A DNA stretch of 64,000 bases from Streptomyces sp. NBC_01460 (GTDB lineage: Bacteria > Actinomycetota > Actinomycetes > Streptomycetales > Streptomycetaceae), in assembly GCF_036227405.1 (NCBI RefSeq), contig NZ_CP109473.1, forward strand, positions 1,736,001-1,800,000. Direction: 5' to 3'. The stretch's first letter is position 1. The number at the start of each line of letters is the position of its first letter. The position numbers were made by a program, and so were the translations under genes. Positions 9,777-34,990 of this stretch are shown here, in pieces. The notes under the pieces were generated by a model. The model did not search any database. It was not told the origin of the DNA and saw only the letters and a program-made list of their open reading frames with translations.

Positions 9777-10075
9777 GCCCTGTACCCACTCCCCCGTGAC
9801 CGGCCTCCAGGCCGGTCGGCCTGCAAGCGACACAGGTATTCTGAGCGCGTCCGCAGGCCGGTATCCCTGAAGTCCGGGGTTGTTACAGCCCCCGGATGAA
9901 GCGGCAGCAGGGGTGTGACGACAACCGGAACCCGAGGCCCCCACCCGGCCGCGATCCCTTGATCATCGCTGGTCGGGCGTGGTCCGGTCGCAGTGCGGCC
10001 ACGGGTGTCCCGGCCGGGTGACTGACGCCCCGTAATCCGGTTTCCCCGCGGCGTGGGCGGTGCGACCATCTGTGC

Positions 10076-10795: not shown

Positions 10796-11038
10796 CCCGG
10801 GCGCACCGCCTCACGACGTACGGCCCCGCCGATCTCCAACAGCCCTTGGACCACGCCGGCGGTGAGCACGGCGACCGGGCTCCACGGCCGCCTTCCTGAG
10901 CCCTCCCCTAACCGTCCCTTAAGCGCACCATAACGATCCTCACCTGCGCCTTTTCACACCCGGATCCCCTCTCCGCGGCGGCTAGTTTGCTGATCACCAC
11001 CTGCTCAACAGCCGTGCCGCCGAAGGAGAACCACCACC

Positions 11039-17200: not shown

Positions 17201-17672
17201 CGCCCACCTCGGACGCGGGGCCGAGCAGCACGGTGAGCCCTTCGGCGGGCAGCGCGTCCCGGGCGACCAGGGGCTGCCCGGTGTCCGGGCCGCCGGCGTC
17301 GGGGGCGTGGGCGGCGGTGACCAGCCGGCACAGCTCGGCCCAGCCCCGGGCGCCGTCCCGGGCGAGAAAGGTGACCCGGGGTGCGGATTCATCGACAAAG
17401 GCACCCCCGCGGGCCGGCGTACGCGGCCTGCGCGCGAGCCCCTCTCCCCCCGGCTGCGGTGCCACCGCGAGCTCCGCCCCGAAGAGCGGCCGCACCCCGG
17501 CCTTCTCGCAGGCCCTGGCGAAGCGGACCGTGCCGGCGAGGCTGTCGCGGTCGGTCAGCGCGAGGGCGCCCATCCCCCGCTCGGCGGCACGCTCGGCCAG
17601 CCGCTCGGGGTGCGACGCCCCGTACCGCAGGGAGAACCCGGAAACGGTATGCAGATGCGTGAACCCGGACAT
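14214..17672 (-). CDS. dnaE2: Error-prone DNA polymerase III alpha subunit DnaE2 (ImuC)
   Basis: 1152-aa C-family DNA polymerase for damage-induced mutagenic repair. It has an N-terminal PHP domain (FTHLHTVSGFSLRYGASHPE), a polymerase core with catalytic aspartates in VLPDIDIDVESARR, and a C-terminal OB-fold region. It lacks the long tail of replicative DnaE, as expected for DnaE2. The ATG at 17672 has AGGAGG six bases upstream. A LexA-type box lies about 60 bp upstream. The stop overlaps imuB, forming the mutasome operon. Confidence 0.94.
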   Translation of the reverse strand: MSGFTHLHTVSGFSLRYGASHPERLAERAAERGMGALALTDRDSLAGTVRFARACEKAGVRPLFGAELAVAPQPGGEGLARRPRTPARGGAFVDESAPRVTFLARDGARGWAELCRLVTAAHAPDAGGPDTGQPLVARDALPAEGLTVLLGPASEVGAALAAGRPDRAAALLAPWREIYGDALRLEVVHHGREGAGPGSLRLAARTVGLAAEQGVRAVLTNAVRYADPGQGPVADVLDSARRLVPVDPRRSPLDSGERWLKDARAMREAAERITSAAGLGRGAGERLFAETRRTADACVVDPADDLGLGSVHFPEPRLVGAGLRTAQRVLASRAAAGMVRHGYDRRRDYWERMHHELDIIAHHGFATYFLTVSQVVDDVKGMGVRVAARGSGAGSLVNHLLGIAHADPVAHGLLMERFLSERRFVLPDIDIDVESARRLDVYRAIIGRFGAERVATVSMPETYRVRHAIRDVGAALSMDPAETDRLAKAFPHIRARDARAAMEELPELRAVAGQKERYGRLWDLVESLDALPRGIAMHPCGVLLSDDSLLRRTPVMPTSGEGFPMAQFDKDDVEHLGLLKLDVLGVRMQSAMAHAVTEVKRASGQELDLDAVPEGDPETYRLIRSAETLGCFQIESPGQRDLVGRLQPATFHDLVVDISLFRPGPVAADMVRPFIEARHGRAPVRYPHPDLEDALRGTYGVVVFHEQIIEMVNIMTGCGRGEADRVRRGLSDPESQARIKVWFARSAERRKYGAEVIARAWEIIEAFGSYGFCKAHAVAFAVPTYQSAWLKAHHPAAFYAGLLTHDPGMYPKRLLLADARRRGVPVLPLDVNQSAAAHRIELVSGEKGDTWGLRLALSDVHGISEAEVARIEAGQPYTSLLDFWQRARPGKPAAERLAQVGALDAFGANRRDLLLHLSELHRAQRSSGSGAAGAQLPLGGGHRTGTVGLPDLNDAERLSAELGVLSMDVSRHLMGDHHAFLEELGAVSAKRLREAGHGETVLVAGAKVATQTPPVRSGRRVIFTTLDDGTGLVDLAFFDDSHAACAHTVFHSWLLLVRGVVQRRGARSMSVVGSAAWNLAELAELRRTGGLDAVAARLAEEPASGEEEAPDDGRRIQLPTGYEMNPWSDLQPAGEGTPTGRKLWHQSQGSAG

Positions 17673-17732
17673 CCGCACCTCCTGGACCGATCCGTACTCG
17701 CCACCCCCTCGCTCTCCACCATAGACCAAGTT

Positions 17733-17748
17733 TCGAACGTTCGTACGA
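17733..17748. promoter_or_regulatory. LexA (SOS) box of the dnaE2-imuB operon
   Basis: TCGAAC-GTTC-GTACGA matches the actinobacterial LexA consensus TCGAAC-N4-GTTCGA with one mismatch. It lies in the 155-bp divergent gap, 61 bp from the dnaE2 start, beside a TATGGT -10-like hexamer on the minus strand (17724-17719). Confidence 0.8.
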
Positions 17749-17827
17749 TAACCGGGCGCGCGGCCACTCCTCCGCCATTCGGCCCGTCCCGCCTGCGCGG
17801 ACACCGCCCTCCCGCGACTGTGGGGGC

Positions 17828-20485: not shown

Positions 20486-21571
20486 TCAGCCGATCTCGGC
20501 GCCGAACGCCGCCAGTGCCTCGGGCACCGGCTGGAAGAACGTCTCGCCACCGGCGGAGCAGTCGCCGCTGCCGCCCGAGGTCAGGCCGAGCGCGGTGTCG
20601 CCCGCGAAGAGCGCGCCGCCGCTGTCGCCGGGCTCGGCGCAGACCGTGGTCTGGATGAGGCCGTTGACGATGTCGCCGTTGCCGTAGTTGACCGTGGCGT
20701 CCAGGGCGGTGACCTCGCCGTCGTGGACCTGGGTGGTGGAGCCGCTGCGGGTCACCGTCTGGCCGACGGTCGCGTCGCCCGCCTTGGCGATGGCCTGGGT
20801 GGAGCCGTTGTAGAGGTCCACCTCGCTGGGGTGCGCCACGTCGGACGTGTACTTGACAAGGCCGTAGTCGTTGTCCGGGAAGCTCGAGCCCTCGTTGGCA
20901 CCGATCTCGGCGCCGCCCTGCGCGTCCGACCAGCTGGTGATCGACTCGGTGCAGTGCCCGGCGGTCAGGAAGTACGGCTCGCCGCCCTTGACGACGTTGA
21001 AGCCCAGCGAGCAGCGCCCGCCGTTGCCCCAGATCGCGTCGCCGCCCGCGATCAGCGGCTTGAACTCACCCTTCGACCTGTTGAGCTCGGCCTTGGAGCC
21101 GAGCCCGTCGACCACCTTGCTGAGCTTGTCCCAGGCCGCGCCGTCGACCGTGCGGTCGGCCGTGACGACCACCTTGTTGGTGACCGGGTCGACGGCCCAG
21201 GAGGTCCCGGGGATGGTGGCCTTGTCCGAGAGGGTCTGCCGGGCGTTCGTCAGCTCGGCGAGCGTGTGCTGGACCAGTCTGGCCTTGCCGCCCGCCTGGC
21301 GGACCTGCTCGGCGGCGGCGTCGTCGACGACGTTGACGACAAGGTGGTCCGAGTCGGCGTCGTAGTACGTGCCGGCGGTGTCGCCGCCCAGAGCCTTGTC
21401 GAGCGTGGCGGCGAGATTTCCGGCCGCGTGCGCGTTGAGGGTCCGGGGGGCGAACTGGGGTACGTCGTCACTGGCGTTCGCGGTCTGGAACGTGACTCCA
21501 GCCGCGACCAGGGCGAGGACGGCCGATCCGGCCATGGTCACGCGCTTCCTGGATATGCGTCGGTGCTTCAA
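20486..21571 (-). CDS. Secreted alpha-lytic/streptogrisin-type serine protease (S1E)
   Basis: 361-aa preproenzyme: signal peptide, a pro-domain with the alpha-lytic-protease prodomain pattern (residues ~40-175), then a chymotrypsin-like mature protease. Catalytic triad motifs are FLTAGHC (His), FPDNDYGLV (Asp) and [11 protein letters not shown] (Ser), and Cys pairs are conserved. The TTG at 21571 is chosen because AGGAGG lies six bases upstream and it yields the typical MKHRRISRKR start; an ATG exists 12 codons later. Paralogue of the protease ending at 33883, with a larger pro-region. Confidence 0.9.
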   Translation of the reverse strand: MKHRRISRKRVTMAGSAVLALVAAGVTFQTANASDDVPQFAPRTLNAHAAGNLAATLDKALGGDTAGTYYDADSDHLVVNVVDDAAAEQVRQAGGKARLVQHTLAELTNARQTLSDKATIPGTSWAVDPVTNKVVVTADRTVDGAAWDKLSKVVDGLGSKAELNRSKGEFKPLIAGGDAIWGNGGRCSLGFNVVKGGEPYFLTAGHCTESITSWSDAQGGAEIGANEGSSFPDNDYGLVKYTSDVAHPSEVDLYNGSTQAIAKAGDATVGQTVTRSGSTTQVHDGEVTALDATVNYGNGDIVNGLIQTTVCAEPGDSGGALFAGDTALGLTSGGSGDCSAGGETFFQPVPEALAAFGAEIG

Positions 21572-22006
21572 CTTCGACCTCCTGTGGGGCCGTGCGGCGG
21601 GCACGTGGGGTACCCGGAACACGGAGGATGGGGCGCCCACTATTCCGATGCGGCCGATAGCACACAAGGTCGACTTCCGGACGCACACATGACGACACCG
21701 GTTCACCCGCGACGTGTTCACAACCGGGGTGTCCCACCACGTCGGTTCCGATTGCGAACACCCGCAGCAATCGCGCGTCGGCAGCGGGTGAGGACTAGTC
21801 CTGTCCTGAAACAGCGCTCGGAGTCCGGATGCCGCGCAGAGCACTCCTGAAGCCGAACACCACCGAATGCCTCCGAACGTTCCGAACACCACCGGCGCGT
21901 TCCGACAGGGAGTGCCGCTATCGCGCCGGATAGGTCATCATCGAACAGGCAGTACATACCGGGTAGTTGATGCCCGGCCGAGCGGTGCGACCGAGCGGAG
22001 GAGCGG
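21572..22006. other. Intergenic region with CCGAAC-type repeats
   Basis: 435 bp between divergent protease and hydrolase genes. It holds an exact 13-bp direct repeat CCGAACACCACCG (21853-21865 and 21882-21894, 29-bp period) with an extra CCGAACG between the copies at 21873, and a TGTGTTC-rich, AT-richer stretch near the protease start. No gene was seen. Confidence 0.5.
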
Positions 22007-22891
22007 GTGCGGAACCGGGTGCGCGTGGCGGACGGGCGGCATCTGATGGTCGAGCGTCAGGGGGACCCGCGGGGCAGACCGGTGTTCCTCCTGCACGGAA
22101 TGCCGGGCAGCCGCCTGGGCCCCGCTCCACGCGGGATGGTCCTCTACCAGCGGAACATGCAGCTGATCTCCTACGACCGGCCGGGGTACGGCGGCTCCGA
22201 CCGGCTGCCCGGACGGCAGGTGAGGGACGTCGCCGAGGACGTACGGGCGATCGCCGACTCGCTGGGCCTGGAGCGCTTCGCCGTGGTCGGCCGCTCGGGC
22301 GGCGCACCGCACGCCCTGGCGTGCGCCGCGCTGATGCCGGACCGGGTCACCCGTGCGGCCGCCCTGGTCAGCCTGGCTCCCCGGGACGCCGAGGGGCTCG
22401 ACTGGTTCGACGGCATGGCGGCGTCCAACGTGCTCGCGTACTCCAGGGCGGTGACCGATCCGGACGGACTGGCGGAGTCCTTCATCAGCCGCTCGGCGAT
22501 GATCCGCCAGGACCCGGCACGGCTCCTGGACGACCTGCGCAGGGAGCTCACCGACTCCGACCGTGTCGTGGTCAACGACGCCGGGATCCGCATGATGCTG
22601 CTCGCCAACTTCCGCGAGGGGCTGCGCACGTCGGCGTACGGCTGGATCGACGACGCGCTGGCCTTCTGCCGGCCGTGGGGTTTCGACCCGGCGGACATCA
22701 AGGGGCCCGTGATGCTGTGGCACGGCGTGAAGGACGTCTTCTCGCCCGTGGGTCACTCCCGCTGGCTGGCCGGGCAGATCCCGGGGGCCACCGCCGTCCT
22801 GGAACCCGCGGCGGCACACTTCGACGCGCTGTCCGTGCTTCCCACCGTGCTCAACTGGCTGCTGGACGAGAGGGAGACAGCGGCCTGCTGA
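22007..22891 (+). CDS. Alpha/beta hydrolase
   Basis: 294-aa cytosolic alpha/beta-hydrolase. It has the oxyanion turn LLHGMPGSR, nucleophile Ser97 in VGRSGGAPH, catalytic Asp in HGVKDVFSP and His in AAAHFDAL. The fold and spacing resemble epoxide-hydrolase/haloperoxidase-like enzymes; the substrate is unknown. GGAGGAG precedes the GTG at a good distance. Convergent with fxsT across a strong terminator, so not obviously part of the Fxs locus. Confidence 0.88.
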   Translation: MRNRVRVADGRHLMVERQGDPRGRPVFLLHGMPGSRLGPAPRGMVLYQRNMQLISYDRPGYGGSDRLPGRQVRDVAEDVRAIADSLGLERFAVVGRSGGAPHALACAALMPDRVTRAAALVSLAPRDAEGLDWFDGMAASNVLAYSRAVTDPDGLAESFISRSAMIRQDPARLLDDLRRELTDSDRVVVNDAGIRMMLLANFREGLRTSAYGWIDDALAFCRPWGFDPADIKGPVMLWHGVKDVFSPVGHSRWLAGQIPGATAVLEPAAAHFDALSVLPTVLNWLLDERETAAC

Positions 22892-22942: not shown

Positions 22943-25900
22943 TCACACCGACATCGGTTCCAGCTCGCGCTGGAACCTCTCCTCGGTCCTCGCTATCCGC
23001 GTCAGCGGGTGATCGTCACCGAGCTGCCGGGCCAGCTCGTCCCCCGTCTCCATCCGTAGCCTCAGCGCCTCGTCGCCGCGTCCCATCGCGTCGAGCGTGA
23101 CCGCGATGTTCGAGGTCATGGCCAGGGTCTCCGGGTGGTGCGCCCCGAGGACCTCCCTGAGCTGCCCGGCCACCTTGCGCTCCGTCTCCAGCACGATGTC
23201 GAGCTCGCCCCGGTCGGCCGTCGCGTTGGCCAGGTTCATCACGCAGAGCAGGGTGTTCGGGTGCTCGCGCCCGAACACCTCACGCATCGAGGCGACCACC
23301 CGTGTCAGCAGCTTCTCCGCCTCCTGGGACGCGCCCGCCCCGGAGAGGTAGACGCCGAGGTTGTTCTGAGCGGCCAGGGTGTACGGGTGCTGTTCGCCCG
23401 GCACCTTCATGTACTGGTCGACGACCTCCTGCGCGGCGTCCCTGGCCGCGCCGTCCTCCCCCGCGGCGAACAGGTCGGCCGCCATGTTGAGGTCGCAGGC
23501 CAGCGACTCGGGGTTGGCCGAGGTGTACTTGGCCCGGTACCTGGCCCGGGTGGCCACCGTCAGCCTGCGCGCGTCCTCCAGCTGACCCGCCCTGCGCAGC
23601 GAGACCGCCAGGCTCTTGGCGGCGCTGAGCGTGGTGGGGTAGGTGCGGCCGAGGGTCGCCTTGAGGCTGTCGTAGGTGCGGCTGAGCAGCGCGACGGAGT
23701 CCTCGTACCGCCCGACCTCACGCAGGTCACGTGCCAGGTTCAGGGCGGAGGACAGACTGTGCGGGTGCTCCTGCCCCAGCACCTCGGACCGCAGGTCGTA
23801 GCAGTCCTGGTCGATCTCCCGGGCCTTGGCGTACTGCCCGATGCTGCGCAGGTTCAGCGCCAGGTTGTTGGCCGCCGCCAGCGTCCGGGCGTGCCGCTCG
23901 TGGAAGATCTGGTTGAAGCCGTCATGGGCCTGGGTCGCCAGCTCGATCGCCCGCCCGTACTCCCCGAGCAGCCCGAGGTCGATGGCCAGGCCGCTGGTGG
24001 TCATGTACGTGTGCGGGTGCTCCGGGCCCAGCACCTCCCGCTGCAGCCGCAGGGTGAACTCGTCGAGTTCCTTCGCCTCCACGTACCGCCCGCGGGTGCG
24101 CAGGATGTTGGACAGGTGGAAGCAGAGGTACAGGTACTGGATGTCGCGCTCGCCCAGCATCTCCAGCCAGGTCGCCCGGAGTTCCTCCCCGAGCGTGCCC
24201 GCGGTCCTCACGTCCCCGCGCTTCCAGAGGTAGCGCACCCGGTCGATCAGCAGCCTGCGGGTCTCGTGGTCCCGGCAGTTGCGCGCGTCGGAGGGGCCGA
24301 GGTGGGGCCAGATCGTGGCGAAGCGCGGCCAGTTCTCCGGATTGTCGATCGGCTCGGTGTCATCGGGCCGGGCACCCGCCAGGATGAGGTGGACGACGTG
24401 CCTGGCCTCCGCCTGCTCCTCCTCGCTGAGCTGCGCCCTGATCACCGCCTGCACGAGCCGGTGCACCTGGATGGAGTTCGACACCTGGTCGACCTTGGCG
24501 AGGGCGAAGCGGCCGATCTCCCTGATGACCCGGCCGAGCACCAGCTTCTCCTGGAGCGAGGAGTCGTAGGGCTTCAGCGCTTCGATCATCTCCTTGCTGT
24601 AGAGGAGATTCGCGGAGATGGGCTCGGGGGCGAAGAAGGCGCAGAGCTGAAGCAGCCGTACAGCCGCCGGTGAACGCTCCTTGAGCCGCTCGATGGAGAT
24701 GTTCCAGGTCGCGGCCACGGGCTGCGGGTAGCCGGCGGGCTGGTTCAGCGCGAGGACCTGCGGCGCCTGCTGGGCGAGCTGTTCCAGATAGGCGTCGATG
24801 GGCGTCGCGGTCTCCGCGATCCAGGCCGCCGCCTGTTCGACGGCGAGCGGCAGGTCACCGACGGCCGTGGCCACCTGGGCGGCGTCCTCGACGCTGAGCC
24901 CCGGGGCGCGGCGCTGCAGGTGCTCGATCGACTCCTCCCGCAGGAAGACGTCGACCGGCAGTGCGTCGCCGTGCTGGGACCATGCCTGGTTCCGGGAGGT
25001 GACCAGGATGTGGCCGGAGCCGCCCTGCGGGAAATAGCGCCTGAGGCGTTCGGGGTCGTCGGCGTTGTCGAAGACGAGCAGCCACCGGTCCGACGGCACA
25101 CCGCGCCTCAGCAGGTCGACCGCCTCCTGGGAGGCCGCCGCCATGTCGTCACCGCCCTGAGCGCCGAGCCGTACGGCCAGCTCGGCGAGCCCGGCGATCA
25201 CGTCGTCCGTCTGTTCGGACGATATCCACCACACCAGGTCGTAGTCGGCCATGAAGCGGTGCACGTACTCCAGCGCCACCTGGGTCTTGCCGACGCCGCC
25301 GAGGCCGTACAGGGTCTGCGGCTGGGGCAGTACGACGGCCATGCCGCCACCGAGCTGGTCGCGCATCCGCTCCAGGACCAGGGACCGGCCGGTGAAGCCG
25401 GGGTTCCTCGGAGGCGCGTTCCAGATCCTGGGCACGGTGCCGGGGAAGCGGGGGCCGGGCGACGCGCCGTCGCCGAGCTGGACCGGCCGGTCCAGGGCAC
25501 GCATGAGTGCCGTCGTCGCATGGACCTCGTCCAGCCGGAACAGGTCGACCGGGTTACGGTCGATATAGGGCGCCGAGAGGCGGACATCGCTGATCCGCAG
25601 AGGGAGCAGCTGACGCCGTCCGCCGCCCGGGTCCTCGGCGACCGCCCTCTCCCACAGGTCCACGGCCCGCTGCGACTTGAGGTAGGCGCTCGAGAGCAGC
25701 ACGACGGTGCGGGCCGCGCTCTCGGCCGCTGTATGCGCGGGATCCGCCGGACCGGTGTCGGCGGAGACGTCCCGCGGGACCACCCTGAACCCGGCCCGGA
25801 CCAGGACCGACTCGATCCAGTCGGCCCACATGCGGTTCTCCGCCACGTAGCTGAGGAAGAGATCGGCGGGCAGTGCGGGCCTGCGCCGGGTGAAGGCGTC

Positions 25901-26878
25901 ACGGATGCGCAGCCGCACCTCCTCGCCCACCGGGGGCATCGAGGTGACCTCCTGTTGGGTGACGACCGCGGTGAGACGTTCGAAGGCGGACAGGAGCGAG
26001 TTGCTGAGCCCGGCCTCGTCCCCGAAGGTCGCGAGGGTCTCCTCGTAGGCGTAGTAGGGGCGGTAGGGGATCTCCACCGCGCCCCAGTAGGCGGTGAGTT
26101 CGTCACCGGAGAGGTCCCGGGGCAGCCGGTCGAACTTCAGCCGGGCCAGCGCCCGGCCTGCGTCGGCCTTCTCCTTCTCGCCCTCGTCGATCCGCATCGG
26201 GACGGGGAAGATGGAGATGGGCCGGCCGGTGTAGCGCTCGGCGATCTGCCGCGCGACGGAGGCCGCACCGTCGATGGACTGGTCGCTGAGGGTGAAGCAG
26301 TCGACGAGCACGTCCGGGAGGTGGACGGTGCAGATGTCGGCGATGTCGCTGAGGCCCGTACGGCTGTCGATGAGGATGTAGTCGTAGTTGGCCTTCATGT
26401 CGTCCCGCAGGGCGTCGAAGAAGTGGCCGCCGCCGAGCCGGTCGTAGAAGTTGTCCCAGTCGAAGGTGGAGACGGTCGCGGAGTACTCGCGGTTCTGCCG
26501 CCCGGCGGAGACGAAGTCGAGGGTGCCGCCCCTGGGGAACTCCCAGCCGAGGGCCTCGGGGTTGAGCGAGACCGCGTGGGGCTGGATACGGGCGTAGTCG
26601 CGGTGCCAGTCGTCGGCGCGCTGCGCGGGGTTGGTCGCGGCCCAGGCGAATTCGGTGATCAGGTCGATCACCCCGGTGGTGGCCCCGAGGGTCGACGGGT
26701 CGAGGAAGGGGTGGAAGAAGCGGTGGAGTCCCGGGGCCTCCAGGTCCCAGTCGACGGCCAGCACCCGCTTGCCGTTGGCGGCCAGGATCCAGGCGGTGTT
26801 GGCCAGGGCCATGGTGCGCCCCGTGCCGCCCTTGTACGAGTAGAAAGTGACGATGCGCCCGTCACGACCGGCTGTCAT
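22943..26878 (-). CDS. fxsT: FxSxx-COOH system NLR-like TPR protein FxsT
   Basis: 1311-aa protein matching the tetratricopeptide-repeat component of FxSxx-COOH RiPP loci. Domains in order: an N-terminal SIMIBI/ParA-MinD-type P-loop (FYSYKGGTGRT, residues 12-22; DYILIDSRTG later); a TIR domain starting near 338 (LFLSYVAENRMWADW); an NB-ARC ATPase with Walker A LGGVGKTQ near 526, Walker B WLLVFDNADD, an ILVTSRN sensor and a GDLPLAVEQAAAW motif; then ~400 residues of kinesin-light-chain-like TPRs (LG.EHP.T repeats). This STAND/NLR layout suggests a switch that oligomerises on sensing a ligand. The ATG overlaps the fxsC stop by 4 bp. Its biochemical role in Fxs systems is not established. Confidence 0.9.
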   Translation of the reverse strand: MTAGRDGRIVTFYSYKGGTGRTMALANTAWILAANGKRVLAVDWDLEAPGLHRFFHPFLDPSTLGATTGVIDLITEFAWAATNPAQRADDWHRDYARIQPHAVSLNPEALGWEFPRGGTLDFVSAGRQNREYSATVSTFDWDNFYDRLGGGHFFDALRDDMKANYDYILIDSRTGLSDIADICTVHLPDVLVDCFTLSDQSIDGAASVARQIAERYTGRPISIFPVPMRIDEGEKEKADAGRALARLKFDRLPRDLSGDELTAYWGAVEIPYRPYYAYEETLATFGDEAGLSNSLLSAFERLTAVVTQQEVTSMPPVGEEVRLRIRDAFTRRRPALPADLFLSYVAENRMWADWIESVLVRAGFRVVPRDVSADTGPADPAHTAAESAARTVVLLSSAYLKSQRAVDLWERAVAEDPGGGRRQLLPLRISDVRLSAPYIDRNPVDLFRLDEVHATTALMRALDRPVQLGDGASPGPRFPGTVPRIWNAPPRNPGFTGRSLVLERMRDQLGGGMAVVLPQPQTLYGLGGVGKTQVALEYVHRFMADYDLVWWISSEQTDDVIAGLAELAVRLGAQGGDDMAAASQEAVDLLRRGVPSDRWLLVFDNADDPERLRRYFPQGGSGHILVTSRNQAWSQHGDALPVDVFLREESIEHLQRRAPGLSVEDAAQVATAVGDLPLAVEQAAAWIAETATPIDAYLEQLAQQAPQVLALNQPAGYPQPVAATWNISIERLKERSPAAVRLLQLCAFFAPEPISANLLYSKEMIEALKPYDSSLQEKLVLGRVIREIGRFALAKVDQVSNSIQVHRLVQAVIRAQLSEEEQAEARHVVHLILAGARPDDTEPIDNPENWPRFATIWPHLGPSDARNCRDHETRRLLIDRVRYLWKRGDVRTAGTLGEELRATWLEMLGERDIQYLYLCFHLSNILRTRGRYVEAKELDEFTLRLQREVLGPEHPHTYMTTSGLAIDLGLLGEYGRAIELATQAHDGFNQIFHERHARTLAAANNLALNLRSIGQYAKAREIDQDCYDLRSEVLGQEHPHSLSSALNLARDLREVGRYEDSVALLSRTYDSLKATLGRTYPTTLSAAKSLAVSLRRAGQLEDARRLTVATRARYRAKYTSANPESLACDLNMAADLFAAGEDGAARDAAQEVVDQYMKVPGEQHPYTLAAQNNLGVYLSGAGASQEAEKLLTRVVASMREVFGREHPNTLLCVMNLANATADRGELDIVLETERKVAGQLREVLGAHHPETLAMTSNIAVTLDAMGRGDEALRLRMETGDELARQLGDDHPLTRIARTEERFQRELEPMSV

Positions 26879-28179
26879 ACGTCCTCCGCATCCGTCGCAG
26901 GGTCGTGCATGTCGGGTATGAACTGGGTGTTGCCCATGGGCCCCATCAGCCGCGTCCGTTCGCTGTGCCGTCCGCCGGCCGGTGGATAGACCGTGGCGTG
27001 CCTCAGATACTGCTGGGCGGCCACCTCGACCACTTGGGGAAGGATCTGGCCGAACGCCTCCATGCTGGGTACCCCCTTGGCCGCGACACGGCAGAAGGCC
27101 CGCCCCTGCCGCATCTTGACCGGCATCGTCTGTTCGAGTTTCTCGGTCAGTTCGGCTTCGGCCGCCCTGCTCTGGTGGTCGTCCCGGCACCAGGGAACGA
27201 CCATGGTCACCCAGGGACGGTTCTCGGCGTCGAAGGCGGCGAGACGTCGTCTCAGGTCCTCGTCCTGCAGCGCCCAGCGGTCGACCAGCAGGATCTCCGG
27301 AGTGCTCGGCGACTGCTTGCCCTCACGTTGCCCGATGTCCTCGTCGAACGGGGTCACGACGGCCTGGTAGTTGAGGGAGCGCACCAGTTCTTCGGCCATG
27401 TAGGCCAGGGGTCTGGCGGCGGCCGGGTGGTAGGGGTTCCACTCCTGCGGATTGTCGCCGTAGTACTCCGGGTTGCGGCCTTCGGGCAGGTCGTGCCGGG
27501 TGGGCGCGGCGATAGTGATCCGCATGGGCCTCGGGGCGCCCGCTCCGCTGCCCGGTGCGCCGAAGGCACTCGGGACGAGGCGGAAGTCGAGCGGTCTGCC
27601 CGAGCCGATCTCCACGGTGTCGGCCACACTGACGATCCGCTTCGCCAGGTGGTAGACGGCCTGCTCGTAGTCCTGGGCGAACAGGGTGAGCTTGATGAGT
27701 CCGTAGAGCCCGTCGCTGACGTAGCGGTCCCCGAAGTCGCGGTGGTTGAACTGTAACCGCTCGGCCGGTCCCGGAAGTTGGTTCGCGGGCACCGGTACCC
27801 AGAGGGCGGGCACGATCGCCTCGGCCGGCTGGTTCGACCGGGCCCGGTGATGGATGGCGCGCTGTTCGAAGGCGTACCACTCCTTGCCGCACATCTCGCT
27901 GGCGAAATAGCGTGGTGAGAACAGCGGCACGAAGACCCGGCAGTTGGCCAGGACATTCCCCAGCCGCTCGGACCAGCCCTCGCCCGAACGTATCTCCCGG
28001 TCCATGAAACCCGCCGACGCCCCCGCCGGCAGGTTGGTCATGGCCATCACATGTCCGCAGAGATCTTGGAAAAGCCGTTCGACCCACATATCGGGGTCCG
28101 AACCACCGCCGTACCCCGGTGTGTGCGCGTAACTCAGAAAGAAGTACGGTCGATGGTCCGCCGCTCGCTGATGCGTCAT
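26875..28179 (-). CDS. fxsC: TIR-like protein FxsC
   Basis: 434-aa protein of the FxsC family linked to FxSxx-COOH peptide loci. Residues ~10-150 are a TIR-like domain (YFFLSYAHT; SGEGWSERLGNVLANCRVFV; FSPRYFASEMCGKEW), with the WCxxE-like segment where TIR NADases place the catalytic Glu. Residues ~235-434 form a second alpha/beta domain of unknown function (TIAAPTRHDLPEG, TPEILLVDRWAL, PWVTMVVPW). Codon 142 is TTA (27756-27754), predicting bldA dependence. The start is weakly supported: only a distant G-rich tract, and an in-frame extension to 28284 is open. Translationally coupled to fxsT. Confidence 0.88.
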   Translation of the reverse strand: MTHQRAADHRPYFFLSYAHTPGYGGGSDPDMWVERLFQDLCGHVMAMTNLPAGASAGFMDREIRSGEGWSERLGNVLANCRVFVPLFSPRYFASEMCGKEWYAFEQRAIHHRARSNQPAEAIVPALWVPVPANQLPGPAERLQFNHRDFGDRYVSDGLYGLIKLTLFAQDYEQAVYHLAKRIVSVADTVEIGSGRPLDFRLVPSAFGAPGSGAGAPRPMRITIAAPTRHDLPEGRNPEYYGDNPQEWNPYHPAAARPLAYMAEELVRSLNYQAVVTPFDEDIGQREGKQSPSTPEILLVDRWALQDEDLRRRLAAFDAENRPWVTMVVPWCRDDHQSRAAEAELTEKLEQTMPVKMRQGRAFCRVAAKGVPSMEAFGQILPQVVEVAAQQYLRHATVYPPAGGRHSERTRLMGPMGNTQFIPDMHDPATDAEDV

Positions 28180-28331
28180 GCGTGCACACGACCCCCGTCC
28201 TGTGTGAGCACCCGCATCCCAGGTCTGTGGTGCGAGGGTGCGAGCGAATTCATCATTCCGGAGCGGACCGTGCTCCACCCCCATGGCGTTCGGTCAATCA
28301 ACGCCGCTTTCCAGTCATCCCTACCCAGGAT

Positions 28332-30611
28332 TCATCGAACAGGTTCTTGATCCGCGGCATTCATGGGGATGTTCATCCCACTTGTCCCATGTACACCTCT
28401 CGCTTCCTCCCGGAGCGACTTCAGAAGCCGCATTCCTCCGACAGTGGGCTCGGCCGCCCCTTCCATCATGTCGAGTGCCTCGGGGACACCGTCCAGGAAT
28501 CCGGGCGCGAGGAAGGAAAGTCCCACGCGTTCATATGTGTCGGCAAGTAGCCCGGAAAAGGGGACCTTGGTATTCCGCTCCCACGGAGGCCGGTACTCCC
28601 AGGCCCCGTCCAGTGCGTAGAGATCGGTGAGGTCCAGGAGGGCCCGCAGCCTGGTCCGTCGCAGACCGCGCAGCAGCGCGAGCGCGAGCGCTGCCGCGTC
28701 CTCCGTCATCGGGAGACCCACGGCGCCGTAGCCGTGGGGCCGTTCCGCGTTCCGTCCTGCGACGGTCGGGGTCAGTGTGGTGAGGCTCCTCGCGGCCTCC
28801 GCCGCCTGCTCGGGCGCGGCCTTCTCCAGCAGCCGCCACGCTCCGCCGACGGCTTCGGTCCAGGCCTTCGCCTCCGTCCCGCCGAGGCGGGGCGCCACCG
28901 GAGCCTCGAAGCAGTCCCGGTAAGGATCCAGATCGTCGAGGGTGAACCCGGGTACGCCCTCCACGACGACGTCCCGCACCGGGAGCCAGTCAGGACCGTC
29001 CGCCCCTCTCGGGACGGTCCGGCGGCCGCCCCCGCCCTCGCGTTCCACCGAGAAGCCGTCGCCGTCGGCCCGCACCCGGATCCGGCCTGTCTCGCCGGGA
29101 CCCGCGATCCGCAGCTCGCCGAGCGTGGGGAGGAAGAGCCTGCCGTCCCGGTAGTCCACCGGCACCGGGAGGTCGAGACCGGACCGCACGACGGCAGCCG
29201 CCACGTACGAGGAGAGTCGCAGCGCCCGGCCGACCGCGCCGGGCCGTTCGGCGTGCAGCCCCTCCAGGGCGTCCAGCAGCCAGGTGCGTGTGTACGGGTG
29301 GGCGAGGACGTGCTCGAGTCCGTCGGCGCCGTCGCCGGAGGACTCCAGTACGCCCGCGAGCCCCCACGCCTCGTCCCACCGGTCGCCGCCGCGGCCGCCC
29401 AGGGCGTCGTGGAGGCCGGCGAGGAGCGTGCGGTTCAAGTCGTGCTGCTCGGCGCTCAGGTCACCCAGGCCGGTCAGAACCGGGGACACCGTGGCCGGAC
29501 CGGTGCGCGCTTCGATCCCTCGCACCAGCGCCGCCAGGTCGTGGCAGTACACGGACGGGTTGTCGAAGCCGTTGGAGGAGCGGTAGCGGTGCGTGTAGAG
29601 ACCGCCCCCGCACGAACGTACGACGGGGCATGAGCGGCAGGTCTCGCTGACGCCGGCCAGTCCGAGCTGCCGCGTCCTGACTCCTGGGTGAGCCGCCACC
29701 TCGTCGAACGCGTGCCGGAAGACGTCGAATCCGGTGGCCGCCGCGCCCTCGTAGGCGCTCTTGAGGGAGTCCACCTGCTCGATCTGACCGTCCGTCTCGA
29801 TGACGACGAGGTCCGTGGGAGCGAGTCCGAGGGATTCGGTGAGGCTGGGGCCGCCGCTCAAGGTGGAACGGACCGACTCGAAGAGCCGCACCGGCATCGG
29901 CCGCCCGCGTTCCGTCCAGCGGTCGAAGACGGCCAGGAGCCAGTCGGCATAGGCGGTGGGCGAACCGTCGGGCCGGAGGGGAGGCTCGTCCCACGTGGCG
30001 TGCGGCAGGAGGAAGTCCACGCGCGGGGGTTCGAGCTCCGCGAGGGCGTCGAACACCGCGACCGGGTCGTTCCGGATGTCGATGGTGCACAGCAGCCCGA
30101 GATCCAGGTGCCGGTAGCGGTCCTGGCGCAGGAGCTCGACGGCTCGGAGGACCAGTGGATGGCTGCTGCGGCCGTTGGCGAAGACGCGGTGCCGGTCGTT
30201 CGCCGCGCGGTCACCGTCGAGGGAGATGCCGACCTTGACCCCGAACTCGTCGAAGAGGTCGAGATACCGGGGGCTGAGCTGGACACCGTTCGTGTGGATC
30301 CTGAGGTCCAGCTCAGCGATTCCGTCCAACGCCGCCGTGAGCTCCTCGCAGACTCGGCGCAGTCGCGCAGGGCCGGCCAGGAGCGGCTCGCCTCCATGCA
30401 GGATCACTGACATCGAATCGAGTGCATGCTCCGAGGCATGCTCGGCCAATCGTCGAGCTGTCCATGAAATCGCTTCGTCAGAGATGGACTTAGGACGGGT
30501 ACGCCAGCTCTGATCTGCATGTTCATAGATGTAGCAATGGTCACACGCGAGATCGCACCTGCTGTGCACCTTGAGCACAATCTCGCGAAAGGGGACCAGG
30601 GGTCCTGTCAT
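28332..30611 (-). CDS. fxsB: FxsB: radical SAM/SPASM cyclophane-forming RiPP maturase with degenerate HExxH-type C-terminal domain
   Basis: 759-aa enzyme. The N-terminal radical SAM domain has the CxxxCxxC cluster motif at C19, C23 and C26 (SRCDLACDHCYIYE) and the GGEPLL SAM loop. A SPASM segment carries auxiliary-cluster cysteines at ~322-345 (ETCRSCPVVRSCGGGLY, then VYCHD). Enzymes of this family form a C-C three-residue cyclophane between Phe and Ser in an F-x-S motif. The C-terminal half (~400-759) aligns by eye with HExxH-type RiPP modification proteins (RALLDLTDLY, then W, then FSGLLADTYERVG), but the HExxH position reads RGLRR (648-652). It begins 30 bp after fxsA, its probable substrate gene. 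Confidence 0.92.
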   Translation of the reverse strand: MTGPLVPFREIVLKVHSRCDLACDHCYIYEHADQSWRTRPKSISDEAISWTARRLAEHASEHALDSMSVILHGGEPLLAGPARLRRVCEELTAALDGIAELDLRIHTNGVQLSPRYLDLFDEFGVKVGISLDGDRAANDRHRVFANGRSSHPLVLRAVELLRQDRYRHLDLGLLCTIDIRNDPVAVFDALAELEPPRVDFLLPHATWDEPPLRPDGSPTAYADWLLAVFDRWTERGRPMPVRLFESVRSTLSGGPSLTESLGLAPTDLVVIETDGQIEQVDSLKSAYEGAAATGFDVFRHAFDEVAAHPGVRTRQLGLAGVSETCRSCPVVRSCGGGLYTHRYRSSNGFDNPSVYCHDLAALVRGIEARTGPATVSPVLTGLGDLSAEQHDLNRTLLAGLHDALGGRGGDRWDEAWGLAGVLESSGDGADGLEHVLAHPYTRTWLLDALEGLHAERPGAVGRALRLSSYVAAAVVRSGLDLPVPVDYRDGRLFLPTLGELRIAGPGETGRIRVRADGDGFSVEREGGGGRRTVPRGADGPDWLPVRDVVVEGVPGFTLDDLDPYRDCFEAPVAPRLGGTEAKAWTEAVGGAWRLLEKAAPEQAAEAARSLTTLTPTVAGRNAERPHGYGAVGLPMTEDAAALALALLRGLRRTRLRALLDLTDLYALDGAWEYRPPWERNTKVPFSGLLADTYERVGLSFLAPGFLDGVPEALDMMEGAAEPTVGGMRLLKSLREEARGVHGTSGMNIPMNAADQEPVR

Positions 30612-30641
30612 TCCCCCAGTCTAGCCACCTCGGTCTTCGAC

Positions 30642-30809
30642 TCAGAGTGACGAGCTGAAGGTCGAAGTCCCCGCGGGCCGAACCGTGGAGGTACCGATTA
30701 CCCGCCCGATCTTCCTGGACGCTTCGACGCCACGGGCGTCGATCTTGGCGAGTGGCACGCGACTCTTCTTCGCAATGGCGAAGGAGGGAGAGGTTTCGTA
30801 GGTCTTCAC
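30642..30809 (-). CDS. fxsA: FxsA: FxSxx-COOH cyclophane RiPP precursor peptide (55 aa)
   Basis: Small gene below usual ORF cutoffs. GTG start with AAGGA five bases upstream; translation begins MKTYETSPSFAIAKKSRVPL and ends at a TGA. The last five residues are F51-S-S-S-L55, satisfying F-x-S-x-x-COOH, so Phe51 and Ser53 are the predicted cyclophane pair. The leader is basic (VPLAKIDARGVEASRKIGRV), with a VPL motif as in other FxsA leaders. An upstream in-frame TGA (30866-30864) rules out a much longer version. Its position immediately before fxsB is the standard precursor location. A competing longer frame over the same bases is discussed under rejected items. Confidence 0.85.
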   Translation of the reverse strand: MKTYETSPSFAIAKKSRVPLAKIDARGVEASRKIGRVIGTSTVRPAGTSTFSSSL

Positions 30810-30883
30810 GGCCGTCCTTGATGATTGTTTCTGGACACTGGATCGCAGCCGGCTCCTGCTTATTCACAGTGTCCGGCGGCATG

Positions 30884-30911
30884 ACTTTACTCTTCCGACA
30901 GGCCCCGGCAA
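30884..30911 (-). promoter_or_regulatory. Predicted fxsA-fxsB promoter
   Basis: TTGCCG (30911-30906), a 16-bp spacer and TAAAGT (30889-30884) on the minus strand match the principal-sigma consensus. They would give a leader of about 65 nt before the fxsA GTG. Confidence 0.5.
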
Positions 30912-31938: not shown

Positions 31939-32275
31939 CGGCACAGCACTCCCCGGACCTGCGTCGACCACGCGCGCTCCCCCTGACCGGAAGAGGGATG
32001 CGTCCCGCCAGGGACAGCAACTCCCCTCTACAGCAACGATGTTGCGCGATCCTTGCACAGGAGCACACATCGCACGAGGGCACCTTCCCGCCATGGGAGG
32101 CACCGGCCTCGGAGGCGCCATTGCCGTACAGGCAGGCGCGACCTACTCTCATGGCCCCGGCAGGCCTGCGCGCTCCTCCCGAGCCCCCGGGCAGCACCTC
32201 GCGGGTCGCGGTCGCCCACGGCAGGCCCGGACGTACTCCCTACCGGACACACCACAACCGCAGACGGGGGCGAAC
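31939..32275. promoter_or_regulatory. Divergent control region with SLATT-gene promoter
   Basis: 337 bp between divergent genes. On the plus strand TTGCCG (32121-32126), 17 bp, TACTCT (32144-32149) is a good principal-sigma promoter for the SLATT gene. Toward the other gene are two ACAGCAAC copies (32014-32021 and 32030-32037). The second is joined to an inverted GTTGC, giving the palindrome GCAAC-GAT-GTTGC (32033-32045), a candidate operator. Confidence 0.5.
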
Positions 32276-33205
32276 ATGACGGCGATTCCAGGACCGCTGC
32301 AGAGCATGGTCTTCAGGAGTGCTGATCTGCCCGCACTCTTCCATCACACCGACGCCGTCGCCGTCGCCCGCCAGCGTGAGGCGGTCAACACCACCCGCGG
32401 CCAGCTCGTCCTGCTCGTCCTCGGAACGGTGCCCGCCGCACTCCCGTGGCAGGCAGAGATCGGCTCCGGTGTGCAACTGCTCGACGCGGCAGCGGTGTTG
32501 GCCTATCTCGGTGTCCTGATCACGACCTACCTGGCCTCCCGGCGCAAAGCAAAGTCGCATTGGCAACTCAACCGTTCCGCAGCCGAGTTCATCAAGTCGA
32601 ACTGCTGGCGCTACGCGGTCCACGGCTCCCCGTTCGACTCGTCCGTCCAGCACCCCGAAGCGGTGTTCGCCAGCCGGCTGGAGGAAGGGCTCCAGGAGCT
32701 GCGGAAGGTGGGCTGGGACGACCCCAGGGAGGAGCTGGCCGATGCCGGGGGCGGTCTCATCACCCCGTCCATGCGGGAGTTACGGGACAAGGCGTTCACC
32801 GTGCGCAAGGAGACGTACGTCCGGGACAGACTGATCGAGCAGCGGCGCTGGTACCGGAGGCGCCGGCTGGTGTCACGGCGTGGTGCGCTCGTCTGGTCGA
32901 GCACCATCGCCGCGCTGACGCTCCCGGCGCTGGTCCTCGCCGTGCTGCAGACCTTCGGCGGTGCGGGGTCGTTCGCGCTGACGGGGACGTTCTCCGCCGC
33001 TGCCGCCGCCTGTCTCGCCTGGAACGAGATGCGCCGTCACCATCCCCTGGTGTCCGCGCACTCGCTGGTCGAGGACGACCTGGAGAACATGCAGGCCGCG
33101 ATGGAGACCACCCTCACCGAGCGGCAGTGGTCGGCCGCCGTCTTCGAGACCGAGCGGATCGTCTCCCCCGAGCACACCGACTGGCTCGTCAGGCACCGGA
33201 TGTGA
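32276..33205 (+). CDS. SLATT-type (DUF4231) membrane effector candidate
   Basis: 309-aa protein with two SLATT/DUF4231-like units. Unit one has two helices (residues ~40-85) then the RKAKSHWQLNRSAAEFIKSN and CWRYAVHGSPF motif. Unit two has a basic ERKETYV-like and RLIEQRRWYRRRRLVSRRG motif followed by two helices (WSSTIAALTLPALVLAVL and the next). SLATT proteins are predicted pore-forming effectors of nucleotide-sensing conflict systems, usually beside SMODS or SLOG genes, and a SLOG-like gene ends 12 bp away, convergent. Codon 169 is TTA (32780-32782), predicting bldA control. Confidence 0.82.
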   Translation: MTAIPGPLQSMVFRSADLPALFHHTDAVAVARQREAVNTTRGQLVLLVLGTVPAALPWQAEIGSGVQLLDAAAVLAYLGVLITTYLASRRKAKSHWQLNRSAAEFIKSNCWRYAVHGSPFDSSVQHPEAVFASRLEEGLQELRKVGWDDPREELADAGGGLITPSMRELRDKAFTVRKETYVRDRLIEQRRWYRRRRLVSRRGALVWSSTIAALTLPALVLAVLQTFGGAGSFALTGTFSAAAAACLAWNEMRRHHPLVSAHSLVEDDLENMQAAMETTLTERQWSAAVFETERIVSPEHTDWLVRHRM

Positions 33206-33217
33206 GCGTGCGCGGAG

Positions 33218-33697
33218 TCAGCCGCGCTCCACTCCGTCGCGCCAGATGACGGTGACCGGCCGCCCGAGGCTGCGGGCGTACGTCACGATGTCGCCGGTGC
33301 CCCCGAGTCCGCGCGCGGGCAGGCCGTCCCAGACCGCGATCAGGCGGTCGCAGTGGTCGGCGATGTAGGCCCCCGCCGCGTAGTAGGCCTCGTCGGTGGA
33401 GTGCGGGAAGTCGAGCCGGATCTCTCGTGCGGCCTTGGCCTTGAGCGCCCGGTAGCGTGCGAGCTCCGTGTGGTCGGCGAACCCGGACTCGTAGTCCCCG
33501 CTGGGGATGACCACGGTCAGCTCGGCCCCGTGGGCCAGGGCGAGGTCGGCGAAGAGCTGGTCGGCCCCGACCGCCAGGCTGGAGAGCGCCTCCAGGGAGC
33601 CGTCGTGTCCGCGGAGTGCCGCTCGGAGGCCTTCCCGCACGTGCGCGTGGAGCTCCTGGGGGATGGAGCGGTGACCGGTCACACCGATGCGTTTCAC
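33218..33697 (-). CDS. SLOG-superfamily Rossmann protein
   Basis: 159-aa soluble protein with an N-terminal MKRIGVTGHRSIP strand-turn typical of the SLOG/DprA-LOG fold. It also has SSLAVGADQLFADLAL (nucleotide-binding helix region), LTVVIPSGDYESGF and CDRLIAVWDGLPARGLGGTG. SLOG domains bind or process nucleotide-derived ligands, and in predicted conflict systems they partner SLATT effectors. It starts at GTG. Convergent with the SLATT gene with 12 bp between stops, so the pair is physically linked but separately transcribed. Confidence 0.82.
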   Translation of the reverse strand: MKRIGVTGHRSIPQELHAHVREGLRAALRGHDGSLEALSSLAVGADQLFADLALAHGAELTVVIPSGDYESGFADHTELARYRALKAKAAREIRLDFPHSTDEAYYAAGAYIADHCDRLIAVWDGLPARGLGGTGDIVTYARSLGRPVTVIWRDGVERG

Positions 33698-33882: not shown

Positions 33883-34785
33883 TCAGAACACGCTGACGCC
33901 GTACGCGCTCAGCGCTTCGGTGACCGGCTGGAAGAACGTCGTCCCGCCCGAGGAGCAGTTGCCGCTGCCGCCCGAGGTGAGTCCGATCGCCCGGGTGCCC
34001 GAGTAGAGGGGGCCGCCGGAGTCGCCGGGTTCGGCGCACACGTTGGTGCGGATCATGCCGTAGACGATGTCCCCGCCGCCGTAGTTGACCGTGGCGTTGA
34101 GGCCGGTGACGGTGCCGCTGTGGATGCCGGTGGTGGAACCCCTGCGGGTGACGGCCAGGCCGACGGTGGCGTTGGCCGCGCTGGTGATGTCCTGGCTGCC
34201 GACGGTGCCGGACTTGGTGACCGAGGTGTTGGTGTACCGCACGATGCCGTAGTCGTTGGTCGGGAAGCTGGAGCCGGTCGTGGTGCCGAGGACGGTGGTG
34301 CGGGCGGAGTCGGACCACCAGGTCCCGGCGCCGTCGGTGCAGTGACCGGCGGTCAGGAAGTAGTAGGTGCTGCCGCTGCGGACGTTGAAGCCGAGGGAGC
34401 AGCGCCAGCTCGTCGCGTAGATGGCGTCACCCCCCGAGATCAGCTTGCTGAACTTTCCGGGGGTGCGTTCGATGCGCAGGGCGCCCGCGTTGGCTCCCGC
34501 GGACTCCTTGATCTCGTTGATCTCCGTCTGCGAGACGGTGCTGTCGACGGTGACGAGGAGCCGTCCGCTCGCCGGGTCGACGTTCCAGGCGGTGCCCGCG
34601 ACGTCGGCGTCGAGCACGGCCTCTCCCGCCGCGCCGAGCTGCTGGGCGCTGAAGGTTGCGGACTGGTCGGCGTTGGCGGCGGGAACCGCGAGAGCGGCGA
34701 CGGCGACGAGGCCCGCGGAGACCGCGGTGATCCGCCTGCGTCTGCCCGTGCTGCCGGTGCGGGGGGTGGTGCGCTTGATCCTCAC
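33883..34785 (-). CDS. Streptogrisin-type secreted serine protease (S1E)
   Basis: 300-aa preproprotease close to streptogrisins A/B. It has an Arg-rich signal peptide (cleaved near PAANA), a short pro-region (~residues 40-115), and a mature chymotrypsin-like domain with [16 protein letters not shown] and [11 protein letters not shown] triad motifs and two disulfide pairs. The GTG at 34785 follows GGGAGGAA. The start is typical (MRIKRTTPR). It shares most mature-domain motifs with the protease at 20.5-21.6 kb but has a much shorter pro-region. Confidence 0.92.
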
Positions 34786-34990
34786 TTTACGTTCCTCCCG
34801 AGGGGAATCGGGGGCCCGCCTGTGGGGTGGCCGGACCCGTGAGGCGCGGTCAAGGGGCGCTGCCGCGGTCCGGAAGATGTTCGAATTCCGGATGCGTCGT
34901 GCTCCTGACGAGCGCTGATCGGGAGTATTGAGGGCCGCGACGAGGCCGCGCAAGGAGGCGTTTTCGGCCGTTTCCGCGCAGGCCGGTACC

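What the first reader, a model, noticed from the sequence alone, without database searches (positions are those of the whole stretch)
22943..30911. Complete FxSxx-COOH cyclophane RiPP locus fxsA-fxsB-fxsC-fxsT
A predicted promoter, a 55-aa precursor, a radical SAM/SPASM maturase, a TIR-like protein and a ParA-TIR-NB-ARC-TPR protein are read in one direction. The gene set is that of FxSxx-COOH loci. Known for the family: FxsB-type enzymes make three-residue Phe-Ser cyclophanes. Not known: what the product does and why NLR-like and TIR proteins accompany it. The precursor could be the ligand or self-marker sensed by FxsT/FxsC; that is a hypothesis.
Basis: partly seen in the sequence, partly recalled or inferred. 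Interest (0 to 1): 0.8.

Follow-up and report, generated by a model that had tools for sequence, protein, structure and literature searches.

The report
RiPP locus wired to TIR alarm
A Streptomyces gene cluster that makes a small cross-linked peptide also encodes a plant-immunity-like receptor and a TIR enzyme, and it travels with two further genes that look like the sensor and membrane effector of a cell alarm, which makes the puzzling purpose of this peptide family testable.

Summary
fxsA, fxsB, fxsC and fxsT lie head to tail on the minus strand (30809 down to 22943). FxsB, FxsC and FxsT pass their NCBIfam cut-offs; FxsA scores below its own (22 against 28 bits) but ends FSSSL-COOH, and 38 of 41 loci carry such a precursor. 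This is the known FxSxx-COOH system; FxsB is the FxsBH form with a dead hydroxylase extension.

An alpha/beta hydrolase (22007-22891 +) flanks the operon in 38 of 39 loci with fxsT. On the other side lie a SLATT two-TM protein (32039-33205 +) and a stand-alone SLOG protein (33218-33697 -). Across 199 same-genus genomes SLATT co-occurs with this FxsB class (odds ratio 142; a neighbouring control gene 2.1), and related sites show the parts missing together or left as relics. FxsC keeps the TIR catalytic glutamate (35 of 36); the TIR of FxsT does not.

Best explanation: an NLR-like sensor (FxsT) with the cyclophane peptide as ligand or guard switches on FxsC as NADase; the product is read by SLOG and opens SLATT. 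This is like Thoeris in logic but not a member. Chemistry and function are inferred; SLOG-SLATT was not seen outside the genus.

The parts
30642..30809 (-). fxsA, 55-aa RiPP precursor; core FSSSL-COOH (codons 30645-30659); no signal peptide apparent by eye (no tool run)
   Evidence: TIGR04268 22 bits, below cut-off 28; FxSxx-type C-terminus in 38 of 41 loci; background 4 of 4433 ORFs
28332..30611 (-). fxsB, radical SAM/SPASM maturase with inactivated HExxH extension (FxsBH)
   Evidence: TIGR04269 603.8/370 and NF040587 475.6/225 bits; CxxxCxxC present; HExxH absent here and in 38 of 41 loci in all
26875..28284 (-). fxsC, TIR domain (residues about 45-223) plus FxsC C-terminal domain; putative catalytic Glu135
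22943..26878 (-). fxsT, ParA-like (KGGTGR variant) - degenerate TIR - NB-ARC - TPR protein
   Evidence: NF040586 1023.3/300; Pfam TIR_2, NB-ARC, TPR_12; Walker A lysine 39 of 39, no conserved TIR Glu
22007..22891 (+). alpha/beta hydrolase (GRSGG nucleophile motif, later Asp and His conserved), convergent with fxsT
   Evidence: Pfam Abhydrolase_1 65.7 bits; present in 38 of 39 loci with fxsT; residues; co-occurrence; also in other families
32039..33205 (+). SLATT_3 + SLATT_1 membrane protein; true start uncertain, probably near codon 80 (32276), since six relatives have a stop between the N-terminal extension and the domain
   Evidence: Pfam PF18184 126.3 bits, PF18181 117.5 bits; 50 of 57 genus hits within 15 kb of class-1 FxsB; start:
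33218..33697 (-). stand-alone SLOG protein of the YpsA/DUF1273 type
30884..30891 (-). conserved upstream element AGTAAAGT, probable promoter or operator part
   Evidence: 14 of 14 close loci; 22 copies in 802 kb; no sigma-70 consensus

Best explanation
This is an FxSxx-COOH RiPP system of the FxsBH type, extended by a TIR-SLOG-SLATT output arm. FxsB cross-links Phe51 and Ser53 of FxsA into a three-residue cyclophane at the free C-terminus (family chemistry, not tested). The peptide stays in the cell and is the ligand or guarded self-molecule of FxsT, an NB-ARC/TPR sensor that assembles on a disturbance such as phage attack (inferred). FxsT's own TIR is degenerate and serves to recruit FxsC, whose intact TIR cleaves NAD+ and makes a cyclic ADP-ribose-like signal (inferred from fold and residue). 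The SLOG protein binds that signal and opens or licenses the SLATT two-TM protein, depolarising the membrane and stopping the hypha (inferred). The hydrolase may trim or destroy the peptide (weakest step). Shown: gene identity, co-inheritance, fold and residue conservation.
For: Family models. SLATT in 56 of 199 same-genus genomes; 50 of 57 hits within 15 kb of class-1 FxsB (540 bits or more) and 2 beside class 2; genome co-occurrence 52 both, 12 FxsB only, 4 SLATT only, 131 neither, odds ratio 142; SLOG 52/12/3/132, odds ratio 191; control neighbour DUF1684 44/20/69/66, odds ratio 2.1. SLOG-SLATT-fxs linkage is kept in other chromosomal contexts (L042, L043, L051, L054) and with divergent FxsB (L089, L106; L088 SLATT only). 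SLOG fold; FxsC TIR fold; Glu aligned with Roq1 (E 0.0045), kept in 35 of 36 FxsC and not in FxsT. Rosetta stone: on the strain's second contig a TPR protein has a whole FxsC fused at its C-terminus (69.5% identity) beside an AAA ATPase and a VMAP-M2 protein, a predicted conflict system. Literature: SLATT predicted ADP-ribose-derivative-regulated, SLOG sensing cADPR, TIR-SLATT pairs in phages (PMC9503650, passages); FxSxx systems with AP-ATPase as conflict systems (PMC7159879 section 24).
Confidence: 0.42

Rival explanations
1. The modified FxsA fragment is exported or released as a peptide toxin or hypha-to-hypha signal, and FxsT/FxsC with SLOG-SLATT are its receptor or self-immunity side, as Kaur et al. 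suggest for related systems ('peptide toxin or signal').
For: PMC7159879 section 24 proposes this; the locus keeps a serine-hydrolase-like gene that could process the peptide.
Against: None of the gene clusters present in 25 or more of 41 loci is a transporter (rarer clusters were not all annotated), and no signal peptide is apparent by eye. L048 keeps fxsA, fxsB and hydrolase without fxsC and fxsT matches, so a self-toxic product would have no such immunity there.
Confidence: 0.2
2. The locus is a development or stress regulator: the cyclophane peptide and NLR-like protein tune sporulation or cell division through the ParA-like part of FxsT, not defence.
For: Conserved chromosomal site in many genomes, among ordinary genes; conserved upstream element AGTAAAGT; MinD/ParA-like domain.
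Against: Patchy: class-1 FxsB in 64 of 199 genomes, with empty sites in relatives (L076-L079); ParA Walker A is the deviant KGGTGR in 39 of 39.
Confidence: 0.2
3. SLOG, SLATT and hydrolase are mere neighbours in a conserved chromosomal block; only fxsABCT is the system.
For: Hydrolase alone remains at the site in L080-L083, SLOG-SLATT alone in L074; 16 of 80 hydrolase hits are away from class-1 FxsB.
Against: Odds ratios 142-229 against 2.1 for a control neighbour; linkage kept in other contexts and with divergent FxsB; joint absence at empty sites and joint debris in L073.
Confidence: 0.1
4. The modified peptide restrains FxsT/FxsC as an antidote-like self-marker; loss of peptide supply triggers the TIR arm.
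For: Core F[SNDQ]S[AS][LIV] is nearly invariant while the leader drifts, as expected of a bound epitope.
Against: The invariance is equally explained by FxsB recognition; an orphan fxsT is tolerated, though fxsC is missing there too (L072).
Confidence: 0.15

Closest known systems
FxSxx-COOH cyclophane RiPP system (NCBIfam TIGR04268/04269/04276, NF040586-040588)
   Same: All four genes in one operon; FxsB, FxsC and FxsT over curated cut-offs; FxSxx C-terminus
   Different: FxsA below cut-off; locus extended by hydrolase, SLATT and SLOG, for which the scans gave no FxSxx-system model
Standalone peptide-processing systems with AP-ATPase and inactive MinD/ParA (Kaur et al. 2020, PMC7159879)
   Same: Same kind: peptide, radical SAM/SPASM enzyme, AP-ATPase-TPR with ParA-like part (section 24 read)
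   Different: The paper pairs SLATT with GAP1 systems, not with this one, in the passages seen; the metallopeptidase there corresponds here to a dead HExxH extension
Thoeris (TIR cyclase + SLOG effector ThsA)
   Same: TIR with catalytic Glu plus a SLOG protein
   Different: SLOG is a separate 159-aa YpsA-like gene next to a SLATT protein, not fused to another effector domain; an NLR and a RiPP are added
VMAP ternary conflict systems
   Same: The FxsC module is fused to a TPR protein beside a VMAP-M2 protein on the same strain's contig C2
   Different: No vWA, MoxR or VMAP protein among the window genes scanned

Membership tests
FxSxx-COOH RiPP system | FxsB over TIGR04269 cut-off with radical SAM motif | tested here: met
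   603.8 bits against 370; CxxxCxxC present
FxSxx-COOH RiPP system | FxsA over TIGR04268 cut-off | tested here: not met
   22 bits against 28; so FxsA itself is filed by its C-terminus and place, not by its model
FxSxx-COOH RiPP system | precursor ends F-x-S-x-x-COOH directly upstream of fxsB | tested here: met
   FSSSL-stop, 30 nt before fxsB; FxSxx-type end in 38 of 41 loci
FxSxx-COOH RiPP system | FxsC and FxSxx TPR protein | tested here: met
   NF040588, TIGR04276, NF040586 over cut-off
FxSxx-COOH RiPP system | Phe-Ser cyclophane, -2 Da | not testable with these tools
   needs co-expression and mass spectrometry
FxsBH, inactivated beta-hydroxylase form | HExxH-type extension with motif lost | tested here: met
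   NF040587 475.6/225; no HExxH in FxsB
SLATT effector | SLATT Pfam domain over gathering score, hydrophobic segments | tested here: met
   PF18184 126.3/26.3, PF18181 117.5/26.3; two hydrophobic segments by Kyte-Doolittle in the window copy; 2 or 3 in 25 of 32 rows, 1 in one, none in 6, which are short fragments cut at a stop
SLOG superfamily | SLOG fold | tested here: met
Thoeris | TIR protein with catalytic Glu | tested here: met
   FxsC Glu135, 35 of 36; TIR fold
Thoeris | ThsA, with SLOG fused to a sirtuin or TM domain (recalled) | tested here: not met
   SLOG is a stand-alone 159-aa protein
Thoeris | cyclic ADP-ribose isomer as signal | not testable with these tools
   needs enzyme assay
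VMAP ternary system | vWA, MoxR and VMAP genes beside the locus | tested here: inconclusive
   none among the window genes scanned, but not all window genes were scanned; present on contig C2 instead

The most novel reading that the evidence does not exclude
A ribosomal cyclophane peptide is the dedicated intracellular ligand or guardee of a bacterial NLR, and the NLR's output is a TIR-made ADP-ribose signal read by a separate SLOG sensor that opens a SLATT pore: a four-step immune circuit (RiPP, NLR, TIR, SLOG-SLATT) not described as one system in the listings and passages that my ten paper searches showed.
Probability: 0.28. Interest if true: 0.87.

Novelty: new variant of a known kind. Interest (0 to 1): 0.6.

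Why it matters
Why a radical SAM cyclophane peptide is encoded with NLR-like and TIR proteins is an open puzzle. Linking it to a TIR-SLOG-SLATT arm turns the puzzle into ordinary assays: does FxsC cleave NAD+, does the SLOG protein bind the product, does SLATT depolarise the membrane, and does the peptide switch FxsT. If true, it would be a RiPP acting as an immune ligand or guard inside the producer, and a bacterial parallel to plant TIR-NLR signalling through small molecules.

Tried and rejected
Sigma-70 promoter at fxsA: none found. RNA hairpin in the fxsA 5' region: a GGACACTG/CAGTGTCC inverted repeat is seen in the window by eye, but the shared structure of 14 sequences is weak (-8.1 kcal/mol) and single folds differ, so no claim. 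Sequence search of the SLOG alignment against PDB: 0 matches at E<=1; settled by fold instead. FxsC C-terminal domain: no fold match obtained; the match rows cover residues 41-224 only. Antibiotic_NAT (AAC(3)-like) gene between fxsB and fxsC: in 12 of the 41 loci (a 13th copy, L060, lies elsewhere) and by tblastn in L096, L099, L100 and L111; absent in the window, so not a part here (Pfam on the L043 copy only). SLATT coupling outside the genus: looked for with one query and not found. PADLOC assignment: no known system. Alignment was badly chosen and not used.

Dropped rows: of 70 class-1 FxsB loci, 40 of the 69 besides the window's own were fetched, chosen for score and contig length; class-2 FxsB hits under 449.8 bits were not entered, so '2 beside class 2' is a lower bound; loci without a FxsA-type ORF are L056, L063 and L064; alignment A2 used 32 of 38 available FxsC relatives, A1 30 of 35 SLOG relatives; of 24 FxsC-positive genomes outside the genus, 12 gave one fetched locus each. 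Three FxsC rows were gapped at the Glu and left out of the 36.
Full report
WHAT IS THERE. The window is part of an 8.8-Mb genome in two contigs; the named homologues listed for its SLOG protein are Streptomyces or Streptomycetaceae, so the genus is taken as Streptomyces by inference. On the minus strand run fxsA (30642-30809), fxsB (28332-30611), fxsC (26875-28284) and fxsT (22943-26878). NCBIfam confirms FxsB (603.8 bits, cut-off 370), its inactivated beta-hydroxylase extension (475.6/225), both halves of FxsC, and FxsT (1023.3/300); FxsA reaches 22 of the needed 28 bits. FxsT reads ParA-like, TIR_2, NB-ARC, DUF7779, TPR_12.

THE PRECURSOR. FxsA ends TFSSSL-stop. I fetched 40 further loci with the same class of FxsB, out of 70 class-1 loci (540 bits or more) in 64 of 199 genomes. 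In 35 of 41 loci (window included) an ORF ending FxSxx (33) or FxSx[IV]G (2) lies within 1.5 kb before fxsB, against 4 of 4433 other ORFs; with a wider rule on starts 38 of 41, two of them with the extra G. Mainly the last residues, F-[SNDQ]-S-[AS]-[LIV], and a leader motif like R-x-P-L-x-x-I-D are kept. No signal peptide is apparent by eye, and no transporter is among the clusters present in 25 or more of the 41 loci.

FXSB. The radical SAM cysteines are present, and HExxH is absent in the window and in 38 of 41 loci in all; L032, L060 and L065 keep it. The closest solved relatives by sequence are the ChlB radical SAM domain (9gm3, E 3.4e-74) and, for the extension, 22nu (E 1.8e-20).

Mapping window genes on the 40 loci and clustering all predicted genes showed three more companions. 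The alpha/beta hydrolase 22007-22891 is in 39 of 41 loci and in 38 of the 39 that have fxsT, mostly beside fxsT, in five inverted loci on the fxsA side; its motif GRSGG and a later Asp and His are conserved (roles assigned by eye). SLATT 32039-33205 (two SLATT domains) is in 31 of 41 by ORF clustering and 32 by tblastn, and the 159-aa gene 33218-33697 in 28 and 31. Other flanking genes vary with chromosomal context.

GENUS-WIDE TEST. Among 199 genomes SLATT gives 57 hits in 56 genomes, 50 within 15 kb of class-1 FxsB and at least 2 beside class 2; a further one (G028) is on a contig that ends inside fxsB (L085). Co-occurrence of SLATT with class-1 FxsB: 52 both, 12 FxsB only, 4 SLATT only, 131 neither, odds ratio 142, p 3e-31; hydrolase 61/3/11/124, odds ratio 229, p 9e-36; SLOG at 150 bits or more 52/12/3/132, odds ratio 191. 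A control neighbour, DUF1684, gives 44/20/69/66, odds ratio 2.1. Genomes are related, so p-values are not to be read literally; the contrast with the control is the point. Against: 20 of 70 class-1 loci have no SLATT within 15 kb, and 16 of 80 hydrolase hits are not near class-1 FxsB, one of these beside class 2.

SITE COMPARISON. At the same chromosomal site (DUF1684, trypsin-like genes, a Pip-like protein, dnaE2; not every marker in every region), L076, L077, L078 and L079 show none of the seven genes at the thresholds used; L075 likewise, but its contig ends early. L073 holds only a truncated hydrolase and a 59-residue SLOG piece. L074 keeps SLATT and SLOG only. L072, the closest relative by DUF1684 (93%), keeps fxsT alone, 1308 codons without a stop. 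L080-L083 keep the hydrolase alone. No ORF with the F[SNDQ]S[AS][LIV] end occurs in any of L072-L083. In L053, L058, L059, L061 and L062 the fxs operon is inverted between the same hydrolase and SLATT-SLOG flanks. Loci with divergent FxsB, L089 and L106, also carry SLOG and SLATT, and L088 SLATT. I read this as one module gained, rearranged and lost in parts.

ROSETTA STONE. Contig C2 (134,670 bases) of the same strain carries a 1566-aa protein with an SAV_2336-type N-terminus (with a DRSSS stretch that looks vWA-like by eye), TPRs and a whole FxsC at the C-terminus (69.5% identical, Glu kept), beside an AAA ATPase and a VMAP-M2 protein with a caspase-type match below cut-off. FxsC thus also serves as the end of a predicted conflict-system protein.

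BREADTH. In 296 genomes of the class FxsC occurs in 34, 10 in the genus and 24 outside; the SLATT protein, searched with one sequence at E<=1e-15, occurs in 14, of which the 9 in the genus are FxsC-positive and the 5 outside are not. Of 20 loci fetched, 12 come from outside the genus (L093-L101, L107-L109); 6 of these 12 have the hydrolase beside fxsT and none shows SLOG or SLATT at 55 bits. So the hydrolase looks like the older partner and SLOG-SLATT like a genus-level output arm.

LITERATURE. Ten searches. The term FxSxx occurs in three papers: Kaur et al. 2020 (PMC7159879; section 24 read whole, passages elsewhere) and two fungal studies seen only as listing. Kaur et al. describe standalone peptide-processing systems with an AP-ATPase and inactive MinD/ParA part, predict toxin or signal, and mention SLATT only with GAP1 systems in the passages seen. 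PMC9503650 (passages) gives the SLOG, SLATT and TIR predictions. Nothing in the listings and passages seen ties SLOG or SLATT to FxSxx loci; the library lacks most subscription papers. Haft and Basu 2011 (not held) and the cyclophane enzymology are recalled.

VERDICT. A true member of a known RiPP family whose gene set was read correctly, but whose borders hide the most telling part: a SLOG-SLATT pair that turns the NLR-TIR half into a likely small-molecule alarm. Mechanism confidence 0.42; identity as an fxs locus is near certain.

Noticed in passing
L092:11123-19132 (contig C2 of the window's own genome): Predicted VMAP-type conflict system whose TPR protein ends in a complete FxsC module (69.5% identical to the window's FxsC); a weak phage-integrase-like match (below cut-off) is nearby (9606-10886).
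   Followed up: partly
L037, L038, L040-L044, L054-L057, L064 between fxsB and fxsC; also L096, L099, L100, L111: An Antibiotic_NAT (AAC(3)-like) acyltransferase gene between fxsB and fxsC, possibly an extra peptide-tailoring enzyme; absent in the window.
   Followed up: partly
L097, L098, L101, L108, L109: In one other family FxsB is followed by a stretch matching the HExxH extension (a separate frame in L097; not checked in the others) and there is a second NB-ARC-TPR stretch without ParA and TIR matches.
   Followed up: partly
window 33883-34953 (-) and 20486-21892 (-): Two alpha-lytic-type secreted proteases flank the extended module on either side and help mark the site in relatives.
   Followed up: partly
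window 13219-17804 (-): dnaE2-like DNA polymerase III alpha next to a Y-family (ImuB-like) protein, a mutasome-like pair.
   Followed up: no
G000:C1:8108345-8108899 (L002): A second, distant radical SAM hit (67 bits to TIGR04269, below cut-off) near the other end of the chromosome.
   Followed up: no
L048 (G053): fxsA, fxsB and the hydrolase are present without fxsC and fxsT matches, so the peptide pathway can exist without the NLR-TIR half.
   Followed up: partly
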